From positions 1 to 32,905 of the forward strand of contig VEOY01000087.1 in the NCBI GenBank assembly GCA_012026685.1: a stretch of 32,905 nucleotides of DNA. Reading direction: 5' to 3'. This DNA comes from Nitrospirota bacterium (GTDB lineage: Bacteria; Nitrospirota; Thermodesulfovibrionia; Thermodesulfovibrionales; UBA6898). Positions within the stretch are counted from its first letter, which is position 1, and each line of letters opens with the position of its first letter. Below the pieces are notes generated by a model, which was given only the letters and a program-made list of their open reading frames with translations, had not been told where the DNA came from and searched no databases. Below are positions 10,334 to 23,252 of the stretch, in pieces. Position numbers and translations under genes: made by a program.

Positions 10334-10897
10334 GTGGATATCAAGAAGATCGAAAAAGGGGTCAGGCTCATAATCGAAGGTATCGGTGAAGACCCGGAGA
10401 GGCCCGGGATGAAAGGCACGCCCGGAAGGGTCGCCAGGATGTATCAGGACATATTTTCCGGCCTTGAGACCCCGACAGAAGAGATCCTGCAGCATATCGA
10501 GGGTGAAAGCCACGAAGAACTCGTCCTGTTGAAAGATATCCCCTTTTATTCCGTCTGTGAGCACCATCTTCTGCCGTTTATCGGCAAGGCCCATGTTGCC
10601 TATATTCCGGGCGCAGGCAAGATCGCAGGCATCGGCGAGCTTGCCAAGGCGCTCGAGATCTTTGCCAAGCGGCCTACCGTCCAGGAGCGTCTGACCGCCA
10701 AGCTTGCGGACATCATCATGGAAAAACTGAGACCAAAGGGAGCCATGGTGGTGATTGACGCGGAACATCTCTGTCTTTCTATGAGAGGTCTGAGAAAATC
10801 GGGTGCCCGTACCGTGACCTCGGCCGTACGGGGTATATTCAGGTCCAAGGAGTCGACGCGTCAGGAACTGTTGGGGCTGATCAGGAAGAACGACTAA
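10334..10897 (+). CDS. folE: GTP cyclohydrolase I
   Basis: 187 residues, a normal length for the enzyme that converts GTP to 7,8-dihydroneopterin triphosphate, the first step of tetrahydrofolate synthesis. Zinc-binding and catalytic motifs are visible: [11 protein letters not shown] (Cys and two His), a second zinc Cys in EHLCLSMRG, and the N-terminal substrate motif [18 protein letters not shown] start at 10334 with a GGGAG ribosome site. It is followed 62 bases later by folD, so both supply folate-linked C1 carriers used by the downstream methylene-THF reductase complex. Confidence 0.96.
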
Positions 10898-10959: not shown

Positions 10960-11864
10960 ATGTCAGCAAAGATCATCAGTGGTACTGAAGTCGCCGCACA
11001 GATTCGCGAGGAACTGAAGAAAGAGGTTGATGAACTGAAGGGGAAGGCCGGTGTGGTACCGGGTCTGGTTACCATTCTGGTAGGGCATAATCCTGCCTCG
11101 GTGAGCTATGTCACCGCGAAGCAGAAGACCGCTCATGAGCTCGGGTTCCATTCTATCCAGGATGATCAGCCCGATGATATCTCGGAGGAGAACCTTCTGA
11201 AACTCATTGACAAATACAATAAGGATCCGAAGATCCATGGCATCCTCGTTCAGCTCCGTTGCCGAAACATATAGACGAAAAGAAGGTCCTCAATGCCATC
11301 GATCCTGACAAGGACGTGGACGGGTTCCATCCGGTCAACGTCGGCCGGCTCATGATCGGTGGAAAAGAGGCAAAGTTCCTTCCCTGCACCCCTGCCGGGA
11401 TCCAGGAACTGATCGTACGTGCCGGGTTTGAGACATCCGGTGCCGAGGTGGTCGTTGTCGGCCGCTCGAACATCGTCGGCAAGCCGATCGCCAATATCAT
11501 GCTCCAGAAGGGCAGAGGCGCCAACTCAACGGTCACCATTGTTCATACCGGTACAAAGAACCTCGAAGAACACTGCAAGCGTGCGGATATCCTTATCGTT
11601 GCAGCAGGGGTGCCGGGCCTCGTGAAGCCAGAATGGATCAAGCCCGGGGCGTGCGTGATAGATGTTGGCGTCAACCGTGTCGGCGAAAAGAAGAGCGAAA
11701 AGACCGGTAAGATGGTGCCGATCCTGAAGGGAGACGTTGACTTTGACGCTGCCAAGGAGATTGCCGGTGCGATCACGCCGGTTCCCGGCGGAGTTGGCCC
11801 GATGACGATCACGATGCTCATGAAAAATACGGTAAAGTCCGCGAAACTGGCAGCCGGTCTGTAA
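10960..11864 (+). pseudogene. folD: Methylene-THF dehydrogenase/methenyl-THF cyclohydrolase, one-base frameshift
   Basis: FolD converts 5,10-methylene-THF to methenyl- and formyl-THF. The N-terminal part (10960 to about 11256) reads normally through YVTAKQKTAHELGF, with the catalytic Lys in YVTAKQK, up to IHGILVQL. The frame then ends as RCRNI-stop. The +2-shifted frame from 11259 continues the family sequence exactly ([25 protein letters not shown], seen as LPKHIDEKK and [11 protein letters not shown]), then the NAD(P) domain ([15 protein letters not shown]) and the C-terminal [15 protein letters not shown]. The usual junction is QLPLP; one C is missing from the run at 11254-11258. Combined length (about 301 codons) is normal. 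As written the protein is truncated; a sequencing or assembly error is at least as likely as a true mutation. The ribosome site AGAGGAGG is strong. Confidence 0.9.
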
Positions 11865-12005: not shown

Positions 12006-12638
12006 ATGGAGGCAAAAGAACAAGTTATGTCAGCCAAAACATTACAATATGAGGCTACAAGTGCCAAATCCCTCCTCCAGGAGGTTGCTGAGAGGTCAGG
12101 GCAAAACCTGCTGGCCTGCTATCAGTGCCGCAGGTGCGCGGCGGGGTGTCCGGTGGGCGAAGAAACCGGTGTAACACCGGACAGGCTCATAAGGATGGTA
12201 CTCCTCGGCGACAAAGAAGAAGCGCTCAGTAACCTCCTGGTCTGGAAGTGCGTAGCATGCTATACCTGCGGGACGCGTTGTCCCAATAATATCCAGACCG
12301 CCCGCATCACGGAGACGCTCAAGCAGATGTCCAAGGCAGCCCATCTTGAGCCGCTTCGCCCCAGGATAGCTGACTTTCATAACGCGTTCATGCAGGCGAC
12401 GGAGCATATGGGCCGGTTCAATGAGATCGAGGGCATGAGGATCTACGAAACCAGGACCGCGGTCAAGGAAATGAAAAGCGGCAATTTCGGCGCGATCGTG
12501 GATGAAATAAAAAATCAGGCCAAACTCGGCATGACCATGATGAAGAAAAAGAGGATGCATTTAAAGGCTGACCAGGTAAAGAACAAGGCGGAGGTCAAGG
12601 CGCTTTACCGGAAGGCAAGACAGGGGAAGGGGGCATGA
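12006..12638 (+). CDS. hdrC: Heterodisulfide reductase-like subunit C (two 4Fe-4S)
   Basis: 210 residues. Two complete 4Fe-4S ligand sets are present: CYQCRRCAAGCPVG (about residues 38-51) and CVACYTCGTRCPNN (about 83-96), as in HdrC. The rest is helical and soluble, without membrane segments, so it belongs to the cytoplasmic HdrABC type. It passes electrons between HdrA and HdrB. An ATG at 12006 or 12027 may be used; a GGAGG lies just inside the longer version, which favours 12027. It overlaps hdrB by 4 bases (ATGA). First gene of the hdrC-hdrB-hdrA-mvhD-metV-metF operon. Confidence 0.93.
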   Translation: MEAKEQVMSAKTLQYEATSAKSLLQEVAERSGQNLLACYQCRRCAAGCPVGEETGVTPDRLIRMVLLGDKEEALSNLLVWKCVACYTCGTRCPNNIQTARITETLKQMSKAAHLEPLRPRIADFHNAFMQATEHMGRFNEIEGMRIYETRTAVKEMKSGNFGAIVDEIKNQAKLGMTMMKKKRMHLKADQVKNKAEVKALYRKARQGKGA

Positions 12639-13516
12639 CCATGGAACTGGCGTATTATCCCGGTTGTTCTCTCCACGCCTCTTCGCAACTCTATGATGTA
12701 CAGTGCAAGATGGTCTTCCGGAACCTTGGCATCGAACTGAAAGAGATCGAGGACTGGAACTGCTGCGGCGCAACAGCCGCGGCCAAGACGGACGATTTCC
12801 TCGCTATCGCACTTCCCGCGCGGAATCTCGGCATCGCTGACGCAACAGGACTTTCCGAGATGGTCATCCCCTGCTCATCCTGCTACAGCAGGACGCTCGT
12901 TTCGCAAAAGAGACTTTCCTGTGACCCCGGGCTCAAGGACGCGATCAACGAAGAGCTGGGCCATAAGGTTGAAGGGAAGATAAAAGTATCGAATATCCTT
13001 GAGGTCCTCATGCCGCGCGCAACGTCCGGGGAGATTGCGGGCAAGGCACATAAGAAACTGGAAGGGCTCAAACCGGCCTGCTATTACGGCTGCCTGCTAA
13101 CCCGCTTTCCCTGCGATGTTGATGTGACGGACGATGTGGAGAACCCGCAGGGTATGGAGACCATCTGCAAGTCCCTCGGGGCTGAGCCTGTCGACTGGAG
13201 TTACAAGACGGACTGTTGCGGCGCGTCAGCATCGGTCAATGACGCTGACCAGTCCCTGATCCTCATGTCCCGGATCATGAAGGACGCGGTAGCCCGCGGC
13301 GCAAACTGTTTCGTTTCCACCTGCCCGCTCTGCCAGTTCAATGTTGACGCTTACCAGGAGCAGGTTGCTCAGAAGTATGGTCTTGAAAAGAGGCTGCCGG
13401 TCTATTTCATTACGGAACTCATCGGCATTTCCATGGGGTTCGATCCCGTAGAAATGCAGGTCGACCGGCATTTGACTGATGCCATGGGGCTGTTAAAGGA
13501 GTTGAAACTGATATGA
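12635..13516 (+). CDS. hdrB: Heterodisulfide reductase-like subunit B (CCG domains)
   Basis: 293 residues with two CCG (cysteine-rich) domains. The first has YYPGCSLH, DWNCCGAT and PCSSCYS; the second has YYGCLLTR, KTDCCGASAS and TCPLCQFN. In methanogen HdrB these cysteines bind two non-cubane 4Fe-4S clusters that reduce a disulfide. In the bacterial MetFV-associated complexes the natural acceptor of this subunit is unsettled. Both cysteine sets look complete. The gene overlaps hdrC and hdrA by 4 bases each, so translation is coupled. Confidence 0.94.
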   Translation: MTMELAYYPGCSLHASSQLYDVQCKMVFRNLGIELKEIEDWNCCGATAAAKTDDFLAIALPARNLGIADATGLSEMVIPCSSCYSRTLVSQKRLSCDPGLKDAINEELGHKVEGKIKVSNILEVLMPRATSGEIAGKAHKKLEGLKPACYYGCLLTRFPCDVDVTDDVENPQGMETICKSLGAEPVDWSYKTDCCGASASVNDADQSLILMSRIMKDAVARGANCFVSTCPLCQFNVDAYQEQVAQKYGLEKRLPVYFITELIGISMGFDPVEMQVDRHLTDAMGLLKELKLI

Positions 13517-16500
13517 GCCTGTTATCGAATTCAACAAAACGCGGTTCAGTTCTTATTGTCGGCGGCGGCATCGGCGGCATGCAGGCGGCACTCGACCTTG
13601 CCGACAGCGGGTTCAAGGTGCACATGGTGCAGCGCGACCCTTCCATCGGCGGGACCATGGTCATGCTGGACAAGACCTTCCCGACCGGCGACTGCGCGAT
13701 GTGCATGATATCGCCGAAGATGGTAGAGGCCGGCCGGCATCTCAATATCGATGTCCATACGCTTGCAGAGGTCTCGTCGGTTGAGGGCGATGCCGGTGAT
13801 TTCAGGGTAAAGGTGAAGGTCGCACCCCGCTATGTCGATGCCGACAAATGCACAGGCTGCGGCGACTGTGAGGTCAAGTGCCCGAAGAAGGTATCGAGCG
13901 AGTTCGACCAGAATCTCGGACAGAGAAAGGCGGTCTATTCGCTCTTCCCGCAGGCGGTGCCGAACACGCGGGCGATCGATGCGAGCCAGTGTCTCTGCCT
14001 GAACGATCCGGACCGGAAGCGCTGTAGGCTGTGCGAAAAGGCCTGCAAGGCGGGGGCGATCAATTATGCGGACAAGGGGAAGGAGATAGAGCTCAATGTC
14101 GGCTCTATCATCCTGAGTCCCGGTCTTGACCGCTATGACGCACGGGCAAGGCAGGAACTCGGTCTGGGCCGCTGGCAGAACGTTGTCTCCTCCATACAAT
14201 TTGAACGCATCCTTTCCGCGTCAGGACCGTATAAAGGCGAGGTCAAGAGGCCCTCTGACGGAAGACACCCGAAAAAAGTGGCCTGGATCCAGTGTGTCGG
14301 CTCACGGGACAATCATAACGCAAACCCCTGGTGTTCATCGGTCTGCTGCATGTATGCCACGAAGCAGTCGATCATCGCCAAGGAGCATGACAAGAACATA
14401 GAGCCGACCGTCTTCTATATGGAGATGCGCGCGTTCGGCAAGGATTTCGACAAGTATGTTGAAAGGGCCAAAAAGGAATATGGTGTCAGATACCAGCGTG
14501 CCATGGTCTCGGCAGTGCGCGAGGAGCCCGGCACCGGCGACCTGGTGATGAAATATGCTGCTGAGGACGGTACGCTGGTCACCGAAAACTTTGATATGGT
14601 CGTCCTCTCGGTCGGCTTTCAGCCGCACTGCGACGCGGAGCAGTTTGCGAAGACCTTCGGCATAGAGACCAACGAGTACCTGTTTGCAAAGACGTCACCC
14701 TTCACGCCGGTCAAAACGTCCCGCGAGGGAGTTTTCGTCACCGGCATCTACCAGGGGCCGAAGGATATCCCGGAGACGGTAATACAGGGCAGTGCTGTTG
14801 CCGGGAGCGTTATGGCGCTTCTTGCCGAGGCCAGGGGGACTGAGACGGTCGAGAAGGAGCTCCCCCCGGAAAAGGACGTTACCGGCGAAGAAGCGAGGAT
14901 CGGTGTTTTTGTCTGCCACTGCGGAACGAACATCTCTTCGACCGTCAATATCGATGAGGTGGTCAACGCGGTGAAAGACCAGCCGGGCGTGGCCTATGTG
15001 ACCAATACGATCTATGCCTGTGCGCAGGACAATCAGGACATGATCAAACAGACGATCAAGGAACAGAACCTGAACCGGGTCGTCATCGCGTCCTGCACGC
15101 CGCGCACGCATGAAAAGCTTTTCCAGGAGACGATCCGCGAGGCGGGGCTGAACAAGTATCTCTTTGACCTTGCCGATATCCGCGAACAGTGCTCCTGGTG
15201 CCATAAGGGCCAGAATGAGGTGGCGACCAAGAAGGCCATCGGCATCGTGAAGATGTCCGTCGCAAAATCGCGACTTCAGGAACCGCTGCAGAGCGAAACG
15301 GTGGGCGTGACGCCTTCTTGTCTCGTCATCGGCGGCGGCATCGCGGGCATGACCTCGGCTCTGTCGCTTGCTGACCAGGGCTTCCCTGTGTATGTCATCG
15401 AAAAGGACAATGAGCTCGGCGGTCTGGTGAAGAACGTCCACCGGACGCTCGAAGGCCTCGATGTCCAGGAATTCCTGAAGGACAGGATCGAGGCAGTGAA
15501 GGAGCACCCGAAGATCACGGTACATACCGGGGTCGAGGTGAAGAAGACCGACGGGTTTGTCGGGAATTTCAAGACCTTGTTGACAGACGGCAGTACGGTA
15601 GATCATGGAGCTGTCATCCTCGCAACAGGCGGGGTCGAGTACGAGCCTACAGAATACCTTTACGGCCAGAGCCCGAATGTGGTCACCCAGCGCCAGCTTG
15701 AAAAGAGGATTGCCGAAGGCGAGATGCCAAAATCAGGTGAGCGGTATGTGATGATACAGTGCGTCGGCTCACGCGAAGAGCCGAACCAGTACTGCTCCCG
15801 CATCTGCTGTCAGGACGCCGTAAAAAATGCCATTGCGATCAAGGAGCGTAATCCCGGCGCAGAGGTAATGATCCTGTACCGGGATGTCCGGACCTATGGC
15901 TTGAGGGAAGACTATTACAAGAAAGCCCGTGATCTGGGAGTGATCTTTACCCGGTATGATGTCGACAGAAAACCCCGGGTTGAGCCCGCAGGCAGCAGGG
16001 TCAATGTCAGGACATGGGACTACATGCTGAACAAGGAGCTTTCCCTTGATGCTGACTGGCTTGTGCTTTCCACAGGTCTGAGACCCCATCCGTCTACCGA
16101 CCGGGTCGGTGAGATGTATAAGGTCACGAGAAACCCTGACGGGTATTTCCTTGAGGCCCATGTGAAGCTCCGCCCTGTTGACTTCCCGAGCGAAGGACTT
16201 TTCGTTGCCGGCCTGGGACACGCGCCCAAGAACATCGATGAGACCATCGCCCAGGCGCTTGCCGCCTCAGGGCGCGCAGGTGTTGTTCTTTCGCACGAGA
16301 AGCTTGCCGTGTCCGGCATTATCGCAAAACACAAACGGGAGCTCTGCATGTCATGCCTCAGCTGTTTCAGGGTGTGCCCCTTCGGGTCGCCCTACATAGC
16401 TGAGGATGGCAAGATCTCGCACAATGAGGTCAAGTGTATGGGGTGCGGCATCTGTGCGGGCATCTGCCCTGCAAAGGCGTTCCAGGTGAACAACTTCAGG

Positions 16501-16563
16501 GATGACCAGATCCTTGCCATGATCGATGCGGCTGCAGAGTCTGAGCCGGGAGTGGTGAATTAA
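13513..16563 (+). CDS. hdrA: HdrA-like flavin-dependent electron-bifurcating subunit, tandem double-length form
   Basis: 1016 residues, about twice a single HdrA module. The first module has an FAD/Rossmann motif (VGGGIGGMQAALDLAD, about residues 16-32), the HdrA motif FPTGDCAMCM, and Fe-S cysteines at about 113-126 (CTGCGDCEVKCPKK) and 160-180 (CRLCEKACKAG). The second module has its own FAD motif (GGGIAGMTSALSLAD, about 607-622). A C-terminal ferredoxin-like domain follows with two cluster sets (CMSCLSCFRVCPFG near 945, CMGCGICAGICPAKAF near 975). HdrA binds the bifurcating FAD and several 4Fe-4S clusters. Two FAD sites fit the long HdrA of bacterial MetFV-linked complexes. No in-frame TGA: the cysteine that is Sec in some methanogen HdrA is not replaced here. 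Confidence 0.94.
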   Translation: MSLLSNSTKRGSVLIVGGGIGGMQAALDLADSGFKVHMVQRDPSIGGTMVMLDKTFPTGDCAMCMISPKMVEAGRHLNIDVHTLAEVSSVEGDAGDFRVKVKVAPRYVDADKCTGCGDCEVKCPKKVSSEFDQNLGQRKAVYSLFPQAVPNTRAIDASQCLCLNDPDRKRCRLCEKACKAGAINYADKGKEIELNVGSIILSPGLDRYDARARQELGLGRWQNVVSSIQFERILSASGPYKGEVKRPSDGRHPKKVAWIQCVGSRDNHNANPWCSSVCCMYATKQSIIAKEHDKNIEPTVFYMEMRAFGKDFDKYVERAKKEYGVRYQRAMVSAVREEPGTGDLVMKYAAEDGTLVTENFDMVVLSVGFQPHCDAEQFAKTFGIETNEYLFAKTSPFTPVKTSREGVFVTGIYQGPKDIPETVIQGSAVAGSVMALLAEARGTETVEKELPPEKDVTGEEARIGVFVCHCGTNISSTVNIDEVVNAVKDQPGVAYVTNTIYACAQDNQDMIKQTIKEQNLNRVVIASCTPRTHEKLFQETIREAGLNKYLFDLADIREQCSWCHKGQNEVATKKAIGIVKMSVAKSRLQEPLQSETVGVTPSCLVIGGGIAGMTSALSLADQGFPVYVIEKDNELGGLVKNVHRTLEGLDVQEFLKDRIEAVKEHPKITVHTGVEVKKTDGFVGNFKTLLTDGSTVDHGAVILATGGVEYEPTEYLYGQSPNVVTQRQLEKRIAEGEMPKSGERYVMIQCVGSREEPNQYCSRICCQDAVKNAIAIKERNPGAEVMILYRDVRTYGLREDYYKKARDLGVIFTRYDVDRKPRVEPAGSRVNVRTWDYMLNKELSLDADWLVLSTGLRPHPSTDRVGEMYKVTRNPDGYFLEAHVKLRPVDFPSEGLFVAGLGHAPKNIDETIAQALAASGRAGVVLSHEKLAVSGIIAKHKRELCMSCLSCFRVCPFGSPYIAEDGKISHNEVKCMGCGICAGICPAKAFQVNNFRDDQILAMIDAAAESEPGVVN

Positions 16564-16585
16564 TTGAAGAGAGAGGAGACAATAG

Positions 16586-17098
16586 ATGGCTGACGTTGCA
16601 GAAGCAACAGAGCGGACGCCGGTTTCCACGATAGAGAAACCGCAGGACATACCTGCGGAATGGCAGCCGAACGTACTTGCGTTTGCGTGCCACTACTGCG
16701 CTTTCGCAGCGGCCGACCTCGCAGGCGTCATGAGGCTTTCCTATCCGCCGAACGTGAAGATCATCAGGCTTCCCTGTACGGGAAAGCTCGACCACATCCA
16801 TGTGCTGCGTGCGTTTGAGCGCGGCATCGACGGTGTGTTCGTCGCCGGTTGACTGGTCGGACAATGCCATTACCTGGAAGGTAATAAGTTCGCAGCGCGC
16901 AGGATCGAATATGCCAAGAAGCTCCTGGCAAAGGTGGGGATCGATCCCGCCAGGATAGAAATGTACAATCTGTCAGCAGCCATGGGGCCGAAATGGGCAG
17001 AGATCTGTACCAATTTTACGGAGAAGATACGGCAGATGGGACCATCGCCCATGTGGTACGCGACACATAAGGATAATAAAAGGAGTGATGACCAATGA
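16586..17098 (+). CDS. mvhD: MvhD-type 2Fe-2S electron-transfer subunit, probable selenoprotein (UGA at codon 89)
   Basis: Read through the TGA at 16850-16852, the frame gives 170 residues, the usual MvhD/FlpD length, ending at TGA 17096-17098 in an ATGA overlap with metV. Conserved cysteines of the family are visible before it (FACHYCAFAAADLAG and RLPCTGKLDH). The TGA falls in the motif DGVFVAG-U-LVGQCHYLEGN, where relatives have Cys (GC-x-x-x-x-CHY). Sequence after the TGA is clearly MvhD (CHYLEGN, GPKWAEICTNF), so this is one gene. MvhD links HdrA to an electron donor. Sec at this position is known for VhuD of Methanococcus-type methanogens. A SECIS-like hairpin follows the codon. It sits between hdrA and metV in the operon. 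Without Sec insertion, an 88-residue fragment would result. Confidence 0.9.
16850..16885 (+). promoter_or_regulatory. UGA Sec codon with SECIS-like hairpin
   Basis: After the UGA (16850-16852) comes a perfect 6-bp hairpin: ATTACC (16869-16874), loop TGGAA (16875-16879), GGTAAT (16880-16885). A weaker outer pairing TGC (16865-16867) with GCA (16892-16894) may extend it. The loop begins 22 bases after the UGA and has G in its second position, in line with general descriptions of bacterial SECIS elements (stem-loop shortly downstream, apical loop with early G). Structure judged by eye. Confidence 0.65.
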
Positions 17099-17808
17099 TA
17101 GTAGGCCAACAGAAGCCATTTGATGAGATCTGGAGCATGGTCAGGGACTTTAAGAAGGTCCTTGTGTACGGCTGCAACACCTGTGTGGCGATCTGCCATG
17201 CCGGCGGCGGCAAGGAGGCGGAGATCCTCGCGTCCATGCTCCGCATGAAGGCGGCCCAGGAGGGCGTCGATATGCAGGTGGATAGCGCTGCCATTGAACG
17301 CCATTGTGAGCCGGAGTTCTTCGAGCCGCTTGACGAGAAGGTAAGGACCTATGATCTCGTTCTCTCGCCAGCCTGCGGCGTCGGCGTGAACTTTCTTGCG
17401 GACCGGCTTGCCGGGGCCATCCCCGTTTACCCCGGGATAAACACCAGCTTCTACGGAGGAGTTCCTGAGGCGGGGTTCTTTGTCGAACTCTGCGGCGGAT
17501 GCGGCAACTGCATACTGCATCTGACCGGCGGTATCTGCCCGATCGTCCGCTGCTCCAAATCGCTCATGAACGGACCCTGTGGCGGCACGAACAACGGCAA
17601 GTGCGAGGTGAGCGACCAGACGGACTGCGCATGGTACCTTATTGTCGAGAGGATGAAAAAGCTCGGTACCCTCGAAAAGCTCCTTGAGGTCCAGCCTCCC
17701 CGTGACTGGTCGACCGGCACGCATGGAGGACCGCGCAGGGTATCGCTTGAGCATATCCGGGCGTATGAGGAAAAGGAAGAAAAGAACGCGGCAACGGAGG
17801 GGAAATAG
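17095..17808 (+). CDS. metV: MetV-type methylene-THF reductase zinc/Fe-S subunit
   Basis: 237 residues, overlapping mvhD by 4 bases and followed directly by metF. Cysteine motifs are abundant: YGCNTCVAICHAGG near the N-terminus, SPACGVG in the middle, and a dense C-terminal set, CGGCGNC, GGICPIVRCSK and NGPCGGTNNGKCEV. This is the MetV (MTHFR C-terminal-like) family, which binds Fe-S or zinc and activates MetF in acetogens. It is predicted to join MetF to MvhD and HdrABC. The presence of the entire set of partners in order makes the assignment strong. Confidence 0.93.
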   Translation: MIVGQQKPFDEIWSMVRDFKKVLVYGCNTCVAICHAGGGKEAEILASMLRMKAAQEGVDMQVDSAAIERHCEPEFFEPLDEKVRTYDLVLSPACGVGVNFLADRLAGAIPVYPGINTSFYGGVPEAGFFVELCGGCGNCILHLTGGICPIVRCSKSLMNGPCGGTNNGKCEVSDQTDCAWYLIVERMKKLGTLEKLLEVQPPRDWSTGTHGGPRRVSLEHIRAYEEKEEKNAATEGK

Positions 17809-18786
17809 ATGAAGAGCGGCAGCAACCTTGAGAAAGTCATAGCAAGCGGCAAAATGGCCGTCACCGCGGAGCTTGGACCGCCGATGAGCGCCGATCCCCA
17901 TGAGGTGGTCAAGAAAGCCGGCATCCTGAAGGGATTTTGCGATGCAGCGAACATCACGGACTGCCAGACCGCGGTCGTCCGCATATCGAGCATCGCGGCT
18001 GCGGTCATTGCGCTCCGTGAGGGGCTTGAGCCGGTCATGCAGATGACCTGCCGTGACCGCAACAGGATAGCGATGCAGGCTGATCTTCTTGGCGCAGCGG
18101 CCCTTGGTCTCAAGAATTGTCTGTGCATCGCAGGTGACCATCAGAAATTCAGTGCCGCAGGAAAGCTGAAGGGCCATCCCGGCGCAAAGAACGTCTATGA
18201 CGTAGACACCTGTCAGCTGGTCGGCATCATGAAGAAAATGAGGGACGAAGGGCTCCAGCAGGGTGGAGACAAGCTCGAAGTTGCACCGAAGTTCTTTATC
18301 GGCGCGTCCTGGACCCCTATGGGAGACCCGATGGATTTCCGGCCGTACAACCTGAAGAAGAAGGTGGATTCGGGTGCTGACTTTATCCAGACCCAGGGCA
18401 TCTATGACATGGATCTTTTCAGGTCGCAGATGGAAAAAGCGCGGAACCTTGGCCTTCATGAGCGGACAGCGATCCTCGCGGGTATCATCGTTCCGAAATC
18501 AGCGATGATGCTTAAATATATGGACTCATCCGTTGCGGGTGTCACCGTGCCGAAGCCGCTCATCGACCGGATGAACAAGGCGAAAGAGGCAGCCGGCGAT
18601 GACAAGAAGAAGATGCGCGAGCTCCAGGAGCAGGAAGGTATCAAAATCACGGTCGAGCTTATTCAGCAGGCGCTTGAGATCCCGGGCATCAAGGGCGTGC
18701 ATATCCAGGCGATCGAGTGGGAAACCGCCATGGAGCCCATTGTCAAGGCAGCGGGGCTTTACCCAAGGCCGACGTTTGACGCATAA
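17809..18786 (+). CDS. metF: Methylenetetrahydrofolate reductase catalytic subunit
   Basis: 325 residues. A TIM-barrel MTHFR with visible family motifs: VTAELGPPMSADP with the catalytic Glu near the start, QMTCRDRNR, NCLCIAGDH, GADFIQTQGIYD and ILAGIIVP. It reduces methylene-THF to methyl-THF, the methyl-branch step of the Wood-Ljungdahl pathway. The start follows metV without a gap, and a strong terminator closes the operon 38 bases after its stop. In Moorella the homologous MetF works only in complex with MetV, HdrABC and MvhD; the same is inferred here. Confidence 0.95.
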   Translation: MKSGSNLEKVIASGKMAVTAELGPPMSADPHEVVKKAGILKGFCDAANITDCQTAVVRISSIAAAVIALREGLEPVMQMTCRDRNRIAMQADLLGAAALGLKNCLCIAGDHQKFSAAGKLKGHPGAKNVYDVDTCQLVGIMKKMRDEGLQQGGDKLEVAPKFFIGASWTPMGDPMDFRPYNLKKKVDSGADFIQTQGIYDMDLFRSQMEKARNLGLHERTAILAGIIVPKSAMMLKYMDSSVAGVTVPKPLIDRMNKAKEAAGDDKKKMRELQEQEGIKITVELIQQALEIPGIKGVHIQAIEWETAMEPIVKAAGLYPRPTFDA

Positions 18787-19249: not shown

Positions 19250-19416
19250 ATACAGGTGATCCCTGTATAAGGAAGGCCTTTCTTCAGGCTTTTCTTCCCG
19301 TTAAACTCGGCTCCGCTTCGGAAATCACGGAATGATACCTCCTGAGCGGAGCCAACTTTTTTATTGTTGTTTGATGGTAGATCGCATTCGGTTCGCTGCA
19401 CGCTTCATGAGAAGCG
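19250..19416 (+). ncRNA. Structured leader candidate upstream of cytochrome, copy 1
   Basis: Three hairpins are shared with copy 2 at 22244-22420. Hairpin A: ATACAGG (19250-19256) with CCTGTAT (19262-19268). Hairpin C: GGCTCCGCT (19309-19317) with AGCGGAGCC (19345-19353), followed by T6 (19357-19362), terminator-like. Hairpin D: CGCTTC (19401-19406), loop ATGA, GAAGCG (19411-19416), just before the ribosome site. Between A and C there is a GGAAGGCCT to TTCTTCC pairing possibility. The layout suggests attenuation or a ligand- or protein-sensing leader; no known riboswitch class is recognised. Folding by eye. Confidence 0.5.
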
Positions 19417-19448
19417 GAACAAACTATCATATGGAGGAATTACTGCTT

Positions 19449-20261
19449 ATGGATGATACAAGGATTTTTGATGAGAAGATGTCCCGGAGGGGACTTATCA
19501 AGGGGGCTGCAGGAGTTGCGGGGATTGCTGCGCTGACTGCCGGAGGTCTTGGCTTCCTTTCAAAGGCGGACGCGGCAAAAGCGAGCCCCGCGGCACTTCC
19601 CTGGCCTTACAAGAAATGTACGGCTGAGGAGATCAAGCAGGCGGGAAATATCGCCCATGACAACTGGTTCAAGGGCTTCTGCAGTTATGCTGTCCTGAGC
19701 GGAGGCGTTGAGATCCTGAGGAAGAAGATAGGGGAACCGTATGCCTCTTTCCCTATGGAGTTGACCACGTTTGCGCACGGCGGAACGTCCGGCTGGGGCG
19801 GGACCTGCGGGACCCTGATAGGAGCGGGCGTTCTGTCAACGCTGTGCGCCGGTCCCAAGGTAGGCGAAGCTATCAATAACGAAGTGATCAATTTCTATGC
19901 AACAACATCGCTTCCGATTTTTGTTCCCGATCACCCGAAGGCCCAGATCAGGACACAGAGCGTCAGCAATTCCCCCCTCTGCCATCTCTCGGTCGGCAAG
20001 TGGATGCAAAAAGAAGGCGTCGGGTTCCTGAGCCCTCAGCAGATGGACCGGTGCGGCAGGCTTGCCGCAGATATGTGCATGAAGACTCTTGAACTCCTGA
20101 ATTTGTGGGCCGACGGAAAATTTGAAGCCAAAACAAAAGCTCCAGTTTTTGCCAATGAAATCCCGAGCCAGAATAACTGCACTGACTGCCATGGATCCAA
20201 CGTACCGAAGACCAGCGGTCCGTTCGGAACAGGGCTCGATCTTCTCAAGGCCGGGCACTAA
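19449..20261 (+). CDS. Tat-exported split-Soret-type cytochrome c, copy 1
   Basis: 270 residues from the ATG at 19449, 11 bases after GGAGG (19433-19437). A twin-arginine signal (MSRRGLIKGAAG) ends near KADA. The mature part has SYAVLSGGVEILRKKIGEP, a glycine-rich GGTSGWGGTCGTLIGAG and CHLSVGKW, then a single c-type heme site CTDCHGS near the C-terminus. This pattern matches the split-Soret cytochrome c family (redox protein with C-GC-type motifs), which in Desulfovibrio is a homodimer with two hemes lying together. Predicted periplasmic electron carrier. Tat export implies a cofactor or folding step before export, although c-type heme is normally attached after export. tatABC follows at once. 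Confidence 0.82.
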   Translation: MDDTRIFDEKMSRRGLIKGAAGVAGIAALTAGGLGFLSKADAAKASPAALPWPYKKCTAEEIKQAGNIAHDNWFKGFCSYAVLSGGVEILRKKIGEPYASFPMELTTFAHGGTSGWGGTCGTLIGAGVLSTLCAGPKVGEAINNEVINFYATTSLPIFVPDHPKAQIRTQSVSNSPLCHLSVGKWMQKEGVGFLSPQQMDRCGRLAADMCMKTLELLNLWADGKFEAKTKAPVFANEIPSQNNCTDCHGSNVPKTSGPFGTGLDLLKAGH

Positions 20262-20632: not shown

Positions 20633-20935
20633 GTGTTTGACATCGGTTTTCAGGAACTGGTCATTATTTTTATTGTCGGCCTGCTGGTCGTTGGCCCGGA
20701 GAAACTGCCGGAGCTCGGCAGGACAGCAGGCAAGTGGATGATCGAGATCCGCAAGGGCATCTCAGCGGTAAAAATGCAGGTGGACCGTGAATTCAAAGAG
20801 GTTGATGTGAGCGCTGATCGCCCTGCGGACCATGTGATCAGGGACATTGATCCTGAGGCGCTGACTCAGAAAGCTGAAACAGCTGAAGCCGTGCCGCCAA
20901 AGGACGATATTGCCCGGATGAAGGAGGTGGCATAA
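20633..20935 (+). CDS. tatB: Twin-arginine translocase subunit TatB (TatA/B family)
   Basis: 100 residues from a GTG at 20633 with an AGGAG site upstream. The N-terminal helix (MFDIGFQELVIIFIVGLLV) carries a Glu at position 8, as TatB does, and the VVGPEKLPELGRTAGKW hinge and amphipathic helix follow, with a longer charged C-terminus than TatA. This arrangement and the position before tatC support TatB as receptor subunit with TatC. It lies 1 base upstream of tatC. Confidence 0.88.
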   Translation: MFDIGFQELVIIFIVGLLVVGPEKLPELGRTAGKWMIEIRKGISAVKMQVDREFKEVDVSADRPADHVIRDIDPEALTQKAETAEAVPPKDDIARMKEVA

Positions 20936-20936
20936 T

Positions 20937-21716
20937 TTGGAACGGGTCGAAATGCCTTTGATGGTGCATCTTTCCGAACTGCGCAAGCGCATGTTGATCT
21001 CTGTTGCTTTTCTCGGGGCCGCATTTATCGTCCTGTTCAACATATCCGAGAGGATATTCGATCTCCTGGTATTCCCGCTGAACACGGAACTGAAGATCAT
21101 TTCTGCGAAACCGTTCCTGAAATTGATCGCAAAAAAACCGGTTTCGCTCGTTTTTCTCTCTCCGGCAGAAGGCTTCTGGATGCACCTGAAAATATCCATG
21201 GTCGCGGCTGCTGTTGTTTCACTGCCGGTGATATTTTTTCAGTTGTGGCGCTTTATTGGGCCGGGATTGGTTGATAAAGAGAAGAAGTATGTCATACCGT
21301 TCGTCGTCACGTCGACCTTTCTTTTTCTGATGGGTGCTGCGTTCTGTTTTATCATCATTCTTCCTTTTGCCCTGACTTTTTTGCTTGGATATAAGACAGA
21401 ACATATGACACCGGTGCTCGCGGTCGGCAGCTATACGGATTTCTGCCTGAAATTCATCCTTGCGTTCGGGGCCATTTTTGAACTTCCCCTGATCATACTC
21501 TTTCTTGCTCGGGCCGATATTGTGTCTCCTGCAGCGCTTGCCAGGCATCGCCGGTATGCGATACTCGGCGCCTTTATCGGCGGTGCCATTCTCACGCCGA
21601 CGCCGGACGCGTTCAACCAGATACTCATGTCCATCCCTATCATCGTGCTCTATGAAATTGGCATTGTCCTTGCCAGGTTCACGGCGCGCCGGGAAAGAAG
21701 TAAAGAACGTGCGTGA
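20937..21716 (+). CDS. tatC: Twin-arginine translocase subunit TatC
   Basis: 259 residues with six predicted membrane helices. TatC motifs are present: HLSELRKRM at the N-terminus, FLSPAEGFW in the first periplasmic loop, and FGAIFELPL with the conserved Glu in helix 4. A TTG start at 20937 is preceded by AAGGAGGT at good distance; an in-frame ATG at 20952 is less well placed. With tatA and tatB it forms a complete system for folded, cofactor-bearing proteins, and its gene neighbours on both sides encode Tat-signal cytochromes. Confidence 0.95.
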   Translation: MERVEMPLMVHLSELRKRMLISVAFLGAAFIVLFNISERIFDLLVFPLNTELKIISAKPFLKLIAKKPVSLVFLSPAEGFWMHLKISMVAAAVVSLPVIFFQLWRFIGPGLVDKEKKYVIPFVVTSTFLFLMGAAFCFIIILPFALTFLLGYKTEHMTPVLAVGSYTDFCLKFILAFGAIFELPLIILFLARADIVSPAALARHRRYAILGAFIGGAILTPTPDAFNQILMSIPIIVLYEIGIVLARFTARRERSKERA

Positions 21717-22243: not shown

Positions 22244-22420
22244 CACAGGCGTACGCATCCGTATGCCTGTGGGGCAGGTCCGCGTGACCAGCCTTCCCCC
22301 TATTGCTCGGCTCCGCTGCGGATGGTATCGCGAGATGATCTGAAGCGGAGCCATTTTTTTAGGACATTCATTGTTTTGGTTTCTGCAATTATCGGATTAC
22401 AACCGTTTCATGAGAAACGG
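22244..22420 (+). ncRNA. Structured leader candidate upstream of cytochrome, copy 2
   Basis: Hairpin A: CACAGGCGTACG (22244-22255), loop CATC, CGTATGCCTGTG (22260-22271), 12 bp with one wobble pair. Hairpin C: GGCTCCGCT (22309-22317) with AGCGGAGCC (22344-22352), then T7 (22354-22360). Hairpin D: CCGTTTC (22403-22409), loop ATGA, GAAACGG (22414-22420). Arms of C are identical to copy 1 while the sequence inside C differs. Hairpin D shows paired changes relative to copy 1 with the same loop. This points to selection for structure. Confidence 0.5.
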
Positions 22421-22448
22421 CATTTTTATGACTCAGGAGGAGGTAGTT

Positions 22449-23252
22449 ATGGGGTTTGAAAAGTTGTGCGGTAAGGAGCTGTCGAGGAGGGGTCTTATCA
22501 AGGGAGCAGCAGGCGCTGCGGGCATGGCTCTCCTGGCATCAGGAGGGTTCGGACTCATGTCAAAAGCGGAAGCAAAGGGGGGGCCGACTGAAAAATGGCC
22601 CTGGCCGTACGAAAAGCTCGACCCGGAAAAGACTGCCGAACTGGCATACAACGAATGGTACCGCGTATTTTGCGGCAATGCAGTCATAAGCAGCATCTTC
22701 GGTCAGCTCCGCGAGAAGGTGGGCGAACCGTACAAGTCATTTCCCATCGATGCCTTTGTCTTTCTCGAGGGTGGGATGGTTGGCTGGGGGACGGTTTGCG
22801 GTTCGAACGCAGGTGCAAATATCGTGAGCAATCTCATCATCGGTCCCAGGATAGCCGGTCCTGAATGTGAGAACGGTGCAGCTATCGGAGCTGATGCCCT
22901 CCAGTGGTATTCGGAGACTGCGCTGCCCTCATATACGCCGAAAGAGCCGAGAGTAAAGGCAGCGATCGTTCAGACGACCAGCAATTCGCCGCTGTGCCAC
23001 GTGTCGGTCGGCAAGTGGATGAAGGCTTCGGGATATGCCCTCGGCAGTCCTGAGAGGAAGGACCGGTGCGCGCGTGTTACCGCGAGCGTCGCTTATCATC
23101 TCGTCCAGGACCTGAACGCGTGGAAAGACGGTACATACAAGCAGAAGTCCACATGGAAACCTGCATCGAATGTAGGGATTACGTCACAGCAGAACTGCAC
23201 TGAATGTCATGGTTCCAATATCCCGGCACCGCCGGCAGCAAAGAAAATATAG
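22449..23252 (+). CDS. Tat-exported split-Soret-type cytochrome c, copy 2
   Basis: 267 residues from the ATG at 22449 behind an excellent GGAGGAGG site. Tat signal LSRRGLIKGAAGAAG ends near KAEA. The mature part parallels copy 1: WPWPYEKLD, NEWYRVFCGNAV, KVGEPYKSFP, MVGWGTVCGSNAGA, SNSPLCHVSVGKWMK and the single heme site CTECHGSN near the C-terminus. The two copies are paralogous along their whole length. Predicted periplasmic redox protein, probably a dimer. It follows small exported gene 2 and precedes an outer-membrane barrel gene, so this copy could belong to a surface-related electron or metal pathway (inference). Confidence 0.82.
   Translation: MGFEKLCGKELSRRGLIKGAAGAAGMALLASGGFGLMSKAEAKGGPTEKWPWPYEKLDPEKTAELAYNEWYRVFCGNAVISSIFGQLREKVGEPYKSFPIDAFVFLEGGMVGWGTVCGSNAGANIVSNLIIGPRIAGPECENGAAIGADALQWYSETALPSYTPKEPRVKAAIVQTTSNSPLCHVSVGKWMKASGYALGSPERKDRCARVTASVAYHLVQDLNAWKDGTYKQKSTWKPASNVGITSQQNCTECHGSNIPAPPAAKKI

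What the first reader, a model, noticed from the sequence alone, without database searches (positions are those of the whole stretch)
16586..17098. MvhD with in-frame TGA: probable selenocysteine in the MetFV-HdrABC-MvhD complex
The frame runs uninterrupted before and after TGA 16850-16852 and reads MvhD on both sides (DGVFVAG before, CHYLEGN after). The TGA sits where the family has a redox Cys, an established Sec position in VhuD of methanogens. A perfect 6-bp hairpin with a 5-base loop starts 17 bases after the TGA. The frame ends in an ATGA overlap with metV, so selection on the post-TGA region is plain. A Sec-containing electron entry subunit would tune its redox behaviour in bacterial methylene-THF reduction.
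Basis: partly seen in the sequence, partly recalled or inferred. Interest (0 to 1): 0.85.

Follow-up and report, generated by a model that had tools for sequence, protein, structure and literature searches.

The report
Selenocysteine in a methylene-THF reductase partner
A stop codon inside an electron-transfer gene (mvhD) next to a one-carbon enzyme is almost certainly read as the rare amino acid selenocysteine; the same codon and its RNA hairpin are conserved in about a hundred related bacteria, so the prediction holds, but the protein belongs to a known selenoprotein family.

Summary
Window 16586-17098 (+) is one MvhD/FlpD frame (PF02662, E 3e-48) interrupted only by TGA at 16850-16852, residue 89. 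All 80 closest relatives found in other genomes (Nitrospirota and delta-type sulfate reducers) have TGA at this codon, and 75 have metV directly downstream. More distant paralogues have Cys there. The hairpin after the TGA meets the published bacterial SECIS model. Its 6-bp stem is intact in 100 of 104 distinct sequences with TGA at this codon and in 0 of 42 with Cys. One stem pair flips A-T to T-A in step between Nitrospirota and sulfate reducers. Silent codon choice is frozen only over the hairpin. The genome carries selA, selB, tRNA-Sec and a selD that is itself a selenoprotein gene.

It is not a new kind of thing. Selenocysteine in FrhD/MvhD/VhuD has been known since 2006, and MetFV-HdrABC-MvhD since 2014. 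What adds something: selenocysteine is uniform in this metV-linked clade; MvhD uses two alternative selenocysteine sites; and in related Nitrospirota the cassette before metVF is replaced by a GltD-MvhD fusion with Cys. Most likely role: Sec89 is a selenolate ligand of the MvhD [2Fe-2S] cluster in electron transfer between HdrABC and MetVF (inferred).

The parts
16586..17098 (+). mvhD selenoprotein gene, 170 aa with Sec at residue 89
   Evidence: PF02662 E 3e-48 across the TGA; phmmer to solved MvhD/VhuD chains E 1e-41 to 1e-29
16850..16852 (+). in-frame TGA, Sec89
   Evidence: TGA in 80/80 close relatives and in 25/25 further Nitrospirota loci, the two sets probably overlapping in part; Cys in more distant homologues
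16869..16885 (+). bSECIS-type hairpin: stem 16869-16874 with 16880-16885, loop TGGAA 16875-16879
   Evidence: stem intact in 100/104 U89 and 0/42 C89 sequences; A-T to T-A covariation; meets the consensus in PMC13188914
12006..12638 (+). hdrC
   Evidence: 4Fe-4S dicluster domains; best NCBIfam hits are HdrC models, below cut-off
12635..13516 (+). hdrB
   Evidence: CCG domains; HdrB and SdhE-type models, below cut-off
13513..16563 (+). hdrA, 1016 aa, tandem HdrA modules, no in-frame stop
   Evidence: Pyr_redox_2 in 3 stretches and Fer4; HdrA2 model 968 bits, below its cut-off
17095..17808 (+). metV, overlaps mvhD by ATGA
   Evidence: PF12225 E 4e-35
17809..18786 (+). metF
   Evidence: PF02219 MTHFR E 2e-33
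10334..10897 (+). folE upstream of the cluster
   Evidence: NCBIfam GTP cyclohydrolase I above cut-off
10960..11864 (+). folD, broken by a frameshift near 11255
   Evidence: two overlapping ORFs; FolD model

Best explanation
The gene encodes an MvhD-type [2Fe-2S] protein with selenocysteine at residue 89. SelB bound to the hairpin 22 nt downstream delivers Sec-tRNA at the UGA (standard bacterial mechanism, inferred from the machinery genes and the hairpin). The protein belongs to an HdrCBA-MvhD-MetVF methylene-THF reductase complex of the Moorella/Sporomusa type. Sec89 most likely replaces one of four Cys ligands of the MvhD [2Fe-2S] cluster, which relays electrons between HdrA and MetVF or an outside partner. 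Shown here: frame, codon conservation, covarying hairpin, Cys in homologues, Sec machinery, operon linkage. Inferred: incorporation of Sec, cluster ligation, direction and partners of electron flow. The confidence given is for selenocysteine at this codon; for the ligand role it is about 0.5.
For: TGA in 80/80 close relatives with the frame conserved on both sides. Hairpin stem 100/104 with U89 versus 0/42 with C89, with a flipped pair. Silent-site conservation limited to the hairpin. selA, selB, tRNA-Sec and a Sec-type selD in the genome. SelA in all 25 other Sec-mvhD Nitrospirota checked; the two of 43 genomes without SelA have no Sec-mvhD. metV directly downstream in 75/80 loci. Non-standard residue at the same column of PDB 9sfi_K. 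Ligand role: divergent MvhD domains before metV in other Nitrospirota keep Cys at 64, 89 and 94 in 12/12 and at 35 in 11/12, but none has Cys at 38; the QmoB-like paralogue keeps the same four and has Asp at 38.
Against: No protein or selenium data. A single-sequence fold is no better than shuffled sequence. One U89 paralogue of 104 (L133) lacks the hairpin. Ligand assignment rests on Cys retention in divergent domains, not on a structure, and the alignment at position 38 is gapped in most of those domains.
Confidence: 0.95

Rival explanations
1. TGA is a sequencing error or the gene is a decaying pseudogene, and residue 89 is really Cys.
For: The assembly has an apparent one-base deletion in folD nearby, so single-base errors are possible.
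Against: The same codon is TGA in 80 loci of other genomes and the downstream half is strongly conserved at protein level.
Confidence: 0.01
2. UGA is a real stop: the cell makes an 88-residue fragment, and the rest is translated separately or not at all.
For: Standard gene callers would end the protein here (ORF 16586-16852); some termination at Sec codons is expected.
Against: Both halves match one 123-residue Pfam domain end to end. Two of the five conserved Cys positions of the family (89 and 94) lie at or beyond the TGA. The hairpin tracks the TGA.
Confidence: 0.02
3. UGA is reassigned genome-wide (for example to Trp or Gly) rather than recoded as Sec.
For: None found.
Against: TGA ends mvhD itself in the ATGA overlap, a tRNA-Sec with anticodon TCA is present, and the position is Cys in homologues, not Trp or Gly.
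Confidence: 0.01

Closest known systems
Selenoprotein FrhD/MvhD/VhuD (PF02662; PMC1794560, PMC13188914)
   Same: Same protein family; Sec at a conserved Cys; listed in sulfate reducers, Moorella, Syntrophomonas and methanogens.
   Different: The review gives the motif as CxxU (residue 38 here); this clade has Sec only at residue 89 (UxxxxC) and is tied to metVF rather than to a hydrogenase. PDB 9sfi_K carries non-standard residues at both positions.
MetFV-HdrABC-MvhD methylene-THF reductase of Moorella thermoacetica and Sporomusa ovata (PMC5861303, PMC9430772)
   Same: Same gene set and order hdrCBA-mvhD-metV-metF; HdrA with a duplicated flavin module, as described for S. ovata.
   Different: No GltD/NAD(P)H module was seen in this HdrA, unlike Moorella. 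The S. ovata paper does not mention selenium. Organism is Nitrospirota.
Sec-containing MvhD of Desulfobacterium autotrophicum HRM2 (PMC2702500)
   Same: Four MvhD selenoproteins were reported in 2009; a D. autotrophicum-labelled MAG in this set (L083) has the metV-linked Sec form.
   Different: The passages read do not name a metV-linked one.

Membership tests
Bacterial selenoprotein gene | in-frame UGA with Cys at that position in homologues | tested here: met
   TGA in 80/80 close relatives; Cys in C89 paralogues
Bacterial selenoprotein gene | bSECIS: 3-9 nt loop, 4-16 bp stem, G in first two loop positions, 16-37 nt from UGA, MFE at most -7.5 | tested here: met
   5-nt loop UGGAA, 6 bp, G at position 2, 22 nt, -8.9 kcal/mol (criteria). 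bSECISearch itself was not run
Bacterial selenoprotein gene | selA, selB, selC, selD in the genome | tested here: met
Bacterial selenoprotein gene | Sec present in the protein | not testable with these tools
   needs mass spectrometry or 75Se labelling
MvhD/FlpD family (PF02662) | full-length domain match and five conserved Cys/Sec positions | tested here: met
   163 bits against cut-off 22; residues 35, 38, 64, 89, 94
F420-non-reducing hydrogenase subunit VhuD (NF045873) | NCBIfam cut-off 215 bits | tested here: not met
   140.8 bits: a relative, not a VhuD
MetFV-HdrABC-MvhD methylene-THF reductase | contiguous hdrCBA-mvhD-metV-metF | tested here: met
   window 12006-18786
MetFV-HdrABC-MvhD methylene-THF reductase | physical complex and methylene-THF reductase activity | not testable with these tools
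   biochemistry needed
MetFV-HdrABC-MvhD methylene-THF reductase | Glu/Lys residues of a bifurcating HdrA flavin | not tested
   not aligned here

The most novel reading that the evidence does not exclude
In this clade Sec is a fixed selenolate ligand of a [2Fe-2S] cluster at the HdrABC-MetVF junction. MvhD is the adaptor that contacts MetV, since an MvhD domain directly precedes metV both here and in the GltD-MvhD fusion that replaces the cassette in related Nitrospirota.
Probability: 0.45. Interest if true: 0.6.

Novelty: new member of a known kind. Interest (0 to 1): 0.4.

Why it matters
Standard gene callers truncate this subunit, so models of carbon fixation or acetate oxidation in Nitrospirota and sulfate reducers can miss that this methylene-THF reductase complex depends on selenium. 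Because Sec is uniform in the metV-linked clade while sister paralogues use Cys or the other Sec site, the family is a natural comparison for what selenium does at an iron-sulfur cluster.

Tried and rejected
Rfam gave no match to the hairpin region. A single-sequence fold was not significant, so comparative evidence was used instead. A first attempt to centre a Desulfobacterota search failed and was replaced by searching the genomes behind loci. I could not fetch Moorella or Sporomusa MvhD, so whether their metV-linked copies carry Sec is not known from this work. Structure prediction was not run because it returns no coordinates for checking cluster ligands. Sequencing error, true stop and code reassignment were considered and rejected.

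Full report
Observation. The frame from 16586 to 17098 (+) is open except for TGA at 16850-16852, and its stop overlaps the metV start as ATGA. Read through, the 170-residue product matches the FlpD/MvhD family from end to end (PF02662, E 3e-48). It also matches solved MvhD and VhuD chains (E 1e-41 to 1e-29). Upstream and downstream genes are hdrC, hdrB, hdrA, metV and metF, with folE and folD before them.

Is the TGA real and selected? A tblastn-confirmed search of GTDB contigs returned 80 relatives, mostly Nitrospirota and delta-type sulfate reducers. All 80 have TGA at this codon. The search patterns did not cover residue 89, so the result is not built in, though only the best 80 of 113 were kept. 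In 396 Nitrospirota genomes, the strong matches (260 bits and above) all carry a TGA, and the next ones (149 bits and below) are more distant homologues, most without a stop inside. Of the strong loci, 25 besides the window were read, and TGA is at residue 89 in all of them; some of these are probably the same records as among the 80. metV starts within 200 bp downstream in 75 of the 80 loci and within about 2 kb in four more; the remaining one is at a contig end.

Hairpin. The sequence after TGA forms ATTACC-TGGAA-GGTAAT. It meets the four bSECIS criteria given in PMC13188914: 5-nt loop, 6-bp stem, G at loop position 2 in the pattern N-G-G-N-N, 22 nt from UGA, and -8.9 kcal/mol. Single-sequence energy is not unusual (z -0.22), so I relied on comparison. 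Silent-codon entropy averages 0.13 over codons 95-100 and 0.88 over the rest of the gene outside codons 89-100. At the fourth stem pair, the 29 sequences with Tyr TAC all have Gly GGT and the 52 with Phe TTC all have Gly GGA, so the pair is kept in all 81. Over metV-linked sequences and paralogues together, the stem is complete in 100 of 104 distinct U89 sequences and in none of 42 C89 sequences. Fisher's p of 2e-32 treats sequences as independent, which they are not; but the same hairpin occurs in U89 paralogues on separate branches.

Machinery. The genome has tRNA-Sec with anticodon TCA, SelB, SelA and SelD, whose own gene contains a TGA in the UxxK motif. SelA is present in all 25 other Sec-mvhD Nitrospirota checked. 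Of the 43 genomes in that search two lack SelA, and neither has a Sec-mvhD.

Two Sec sites. Among the MvhD loci read from 20 genomes plus selected Nitrospirota, TGA falls at residue 38 (19), at residue 89 (43, of which 20 are metV-linked), at both (2), or at neither. The metV-linked clade is one group with 99/100 support and uniformly U89; its nearest groups are Cys-only and U38. The review lists CxxU, the residue-38 site, for this family. PDB chain 9sfi_K has non-standard residues at both.

Alternative cassette. I looked at 12 Nitrospirota genomes that have a close MetV but no Sec-mvhD. In all 12, a divergent MvhD domain lies near metV. In the one read in full, L224, it is the C-terminus of a 704-residue GltD-like NAD(P)H/flavin protein, with folE and folD upstream as in the window. 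In 11 of the 12 the open frame holding the domain is about 690-735 residues (L231 is shorter, 416). Residue 89 is Cys in all 12. Cys is kept at 64 and 94 in all 12 and at 35 in 11, never at 38. This suggests that 35, 64, 89 and 94 are the cluster ligands and that 38 is not.

Function. MvhD of methanogens carries one [2Fe-2S] cluster and passes electrons to HdrA (PMC6019823). In Sporomusa ovata MvhD binds HdrA, HdrB and MetF and is mostly in the membrane fraction (PMC9430772). The likely role here is electron relay between HdrABC and MetVF or an outside partner. Direction depends on whether the host runs the pathway reductively or oxidatively, which was not determined.

Known or new. Sec in this family was described in 2006 (PMC1794560) and reported for four MvhD proteins of D. 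autotrophicum in 2009 (PMC2702500). The MetFV-HdrABC-MvhD enzyme dates from 2014 (PMC5861303). I found no paper in the searched library that describes Sec in a metV-linked MvhD of Nitrospirota, but the library omits most subscription papers. I file it as a new member of a known kind.

Noticed in passing
window 10960-11864: folD is split by an apparent one-base deletion (CTCC where CTCCC would keep the frame) near 11255; relative L224 has an intact 303-aa FolD. Could be an assembly error.
   Followed up: partly
L223-L234: In 12 of 12 inspected Nitrospirota with MetV but no Sec-mvhD, a divergent Cys-type MvhD domain lies before metVF; in L224 it is the C-terminus of a single 704-aa GltD-MvhD fusion that takes the place of hdrCBA-mvhD.
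   Followed up: partly
L149-L218: MvhD paralogues use two alternative Sec sites, residue 38 (CxxU) or residue 89 (UxxxxC), and two (L209, L212) have both.
   Followed up: partly
L133 (G294): An MvhD paralogue with TGA at residue 89 but without the conserved hairpin; possibly a different SECIS form.
   Followed up: no
window 19332-20261 and 22371-23252: Two related C_GCAxxG_C_C redox proteins with twin-arginine-like N-termini flank tatA- and tatC-like genes (20633-21716).
   Followed up: no
L096 (G000 C88): The genome's selD is itself a selenoprotein gene, with TGA in the UxxK motif.
   Followed up: yes
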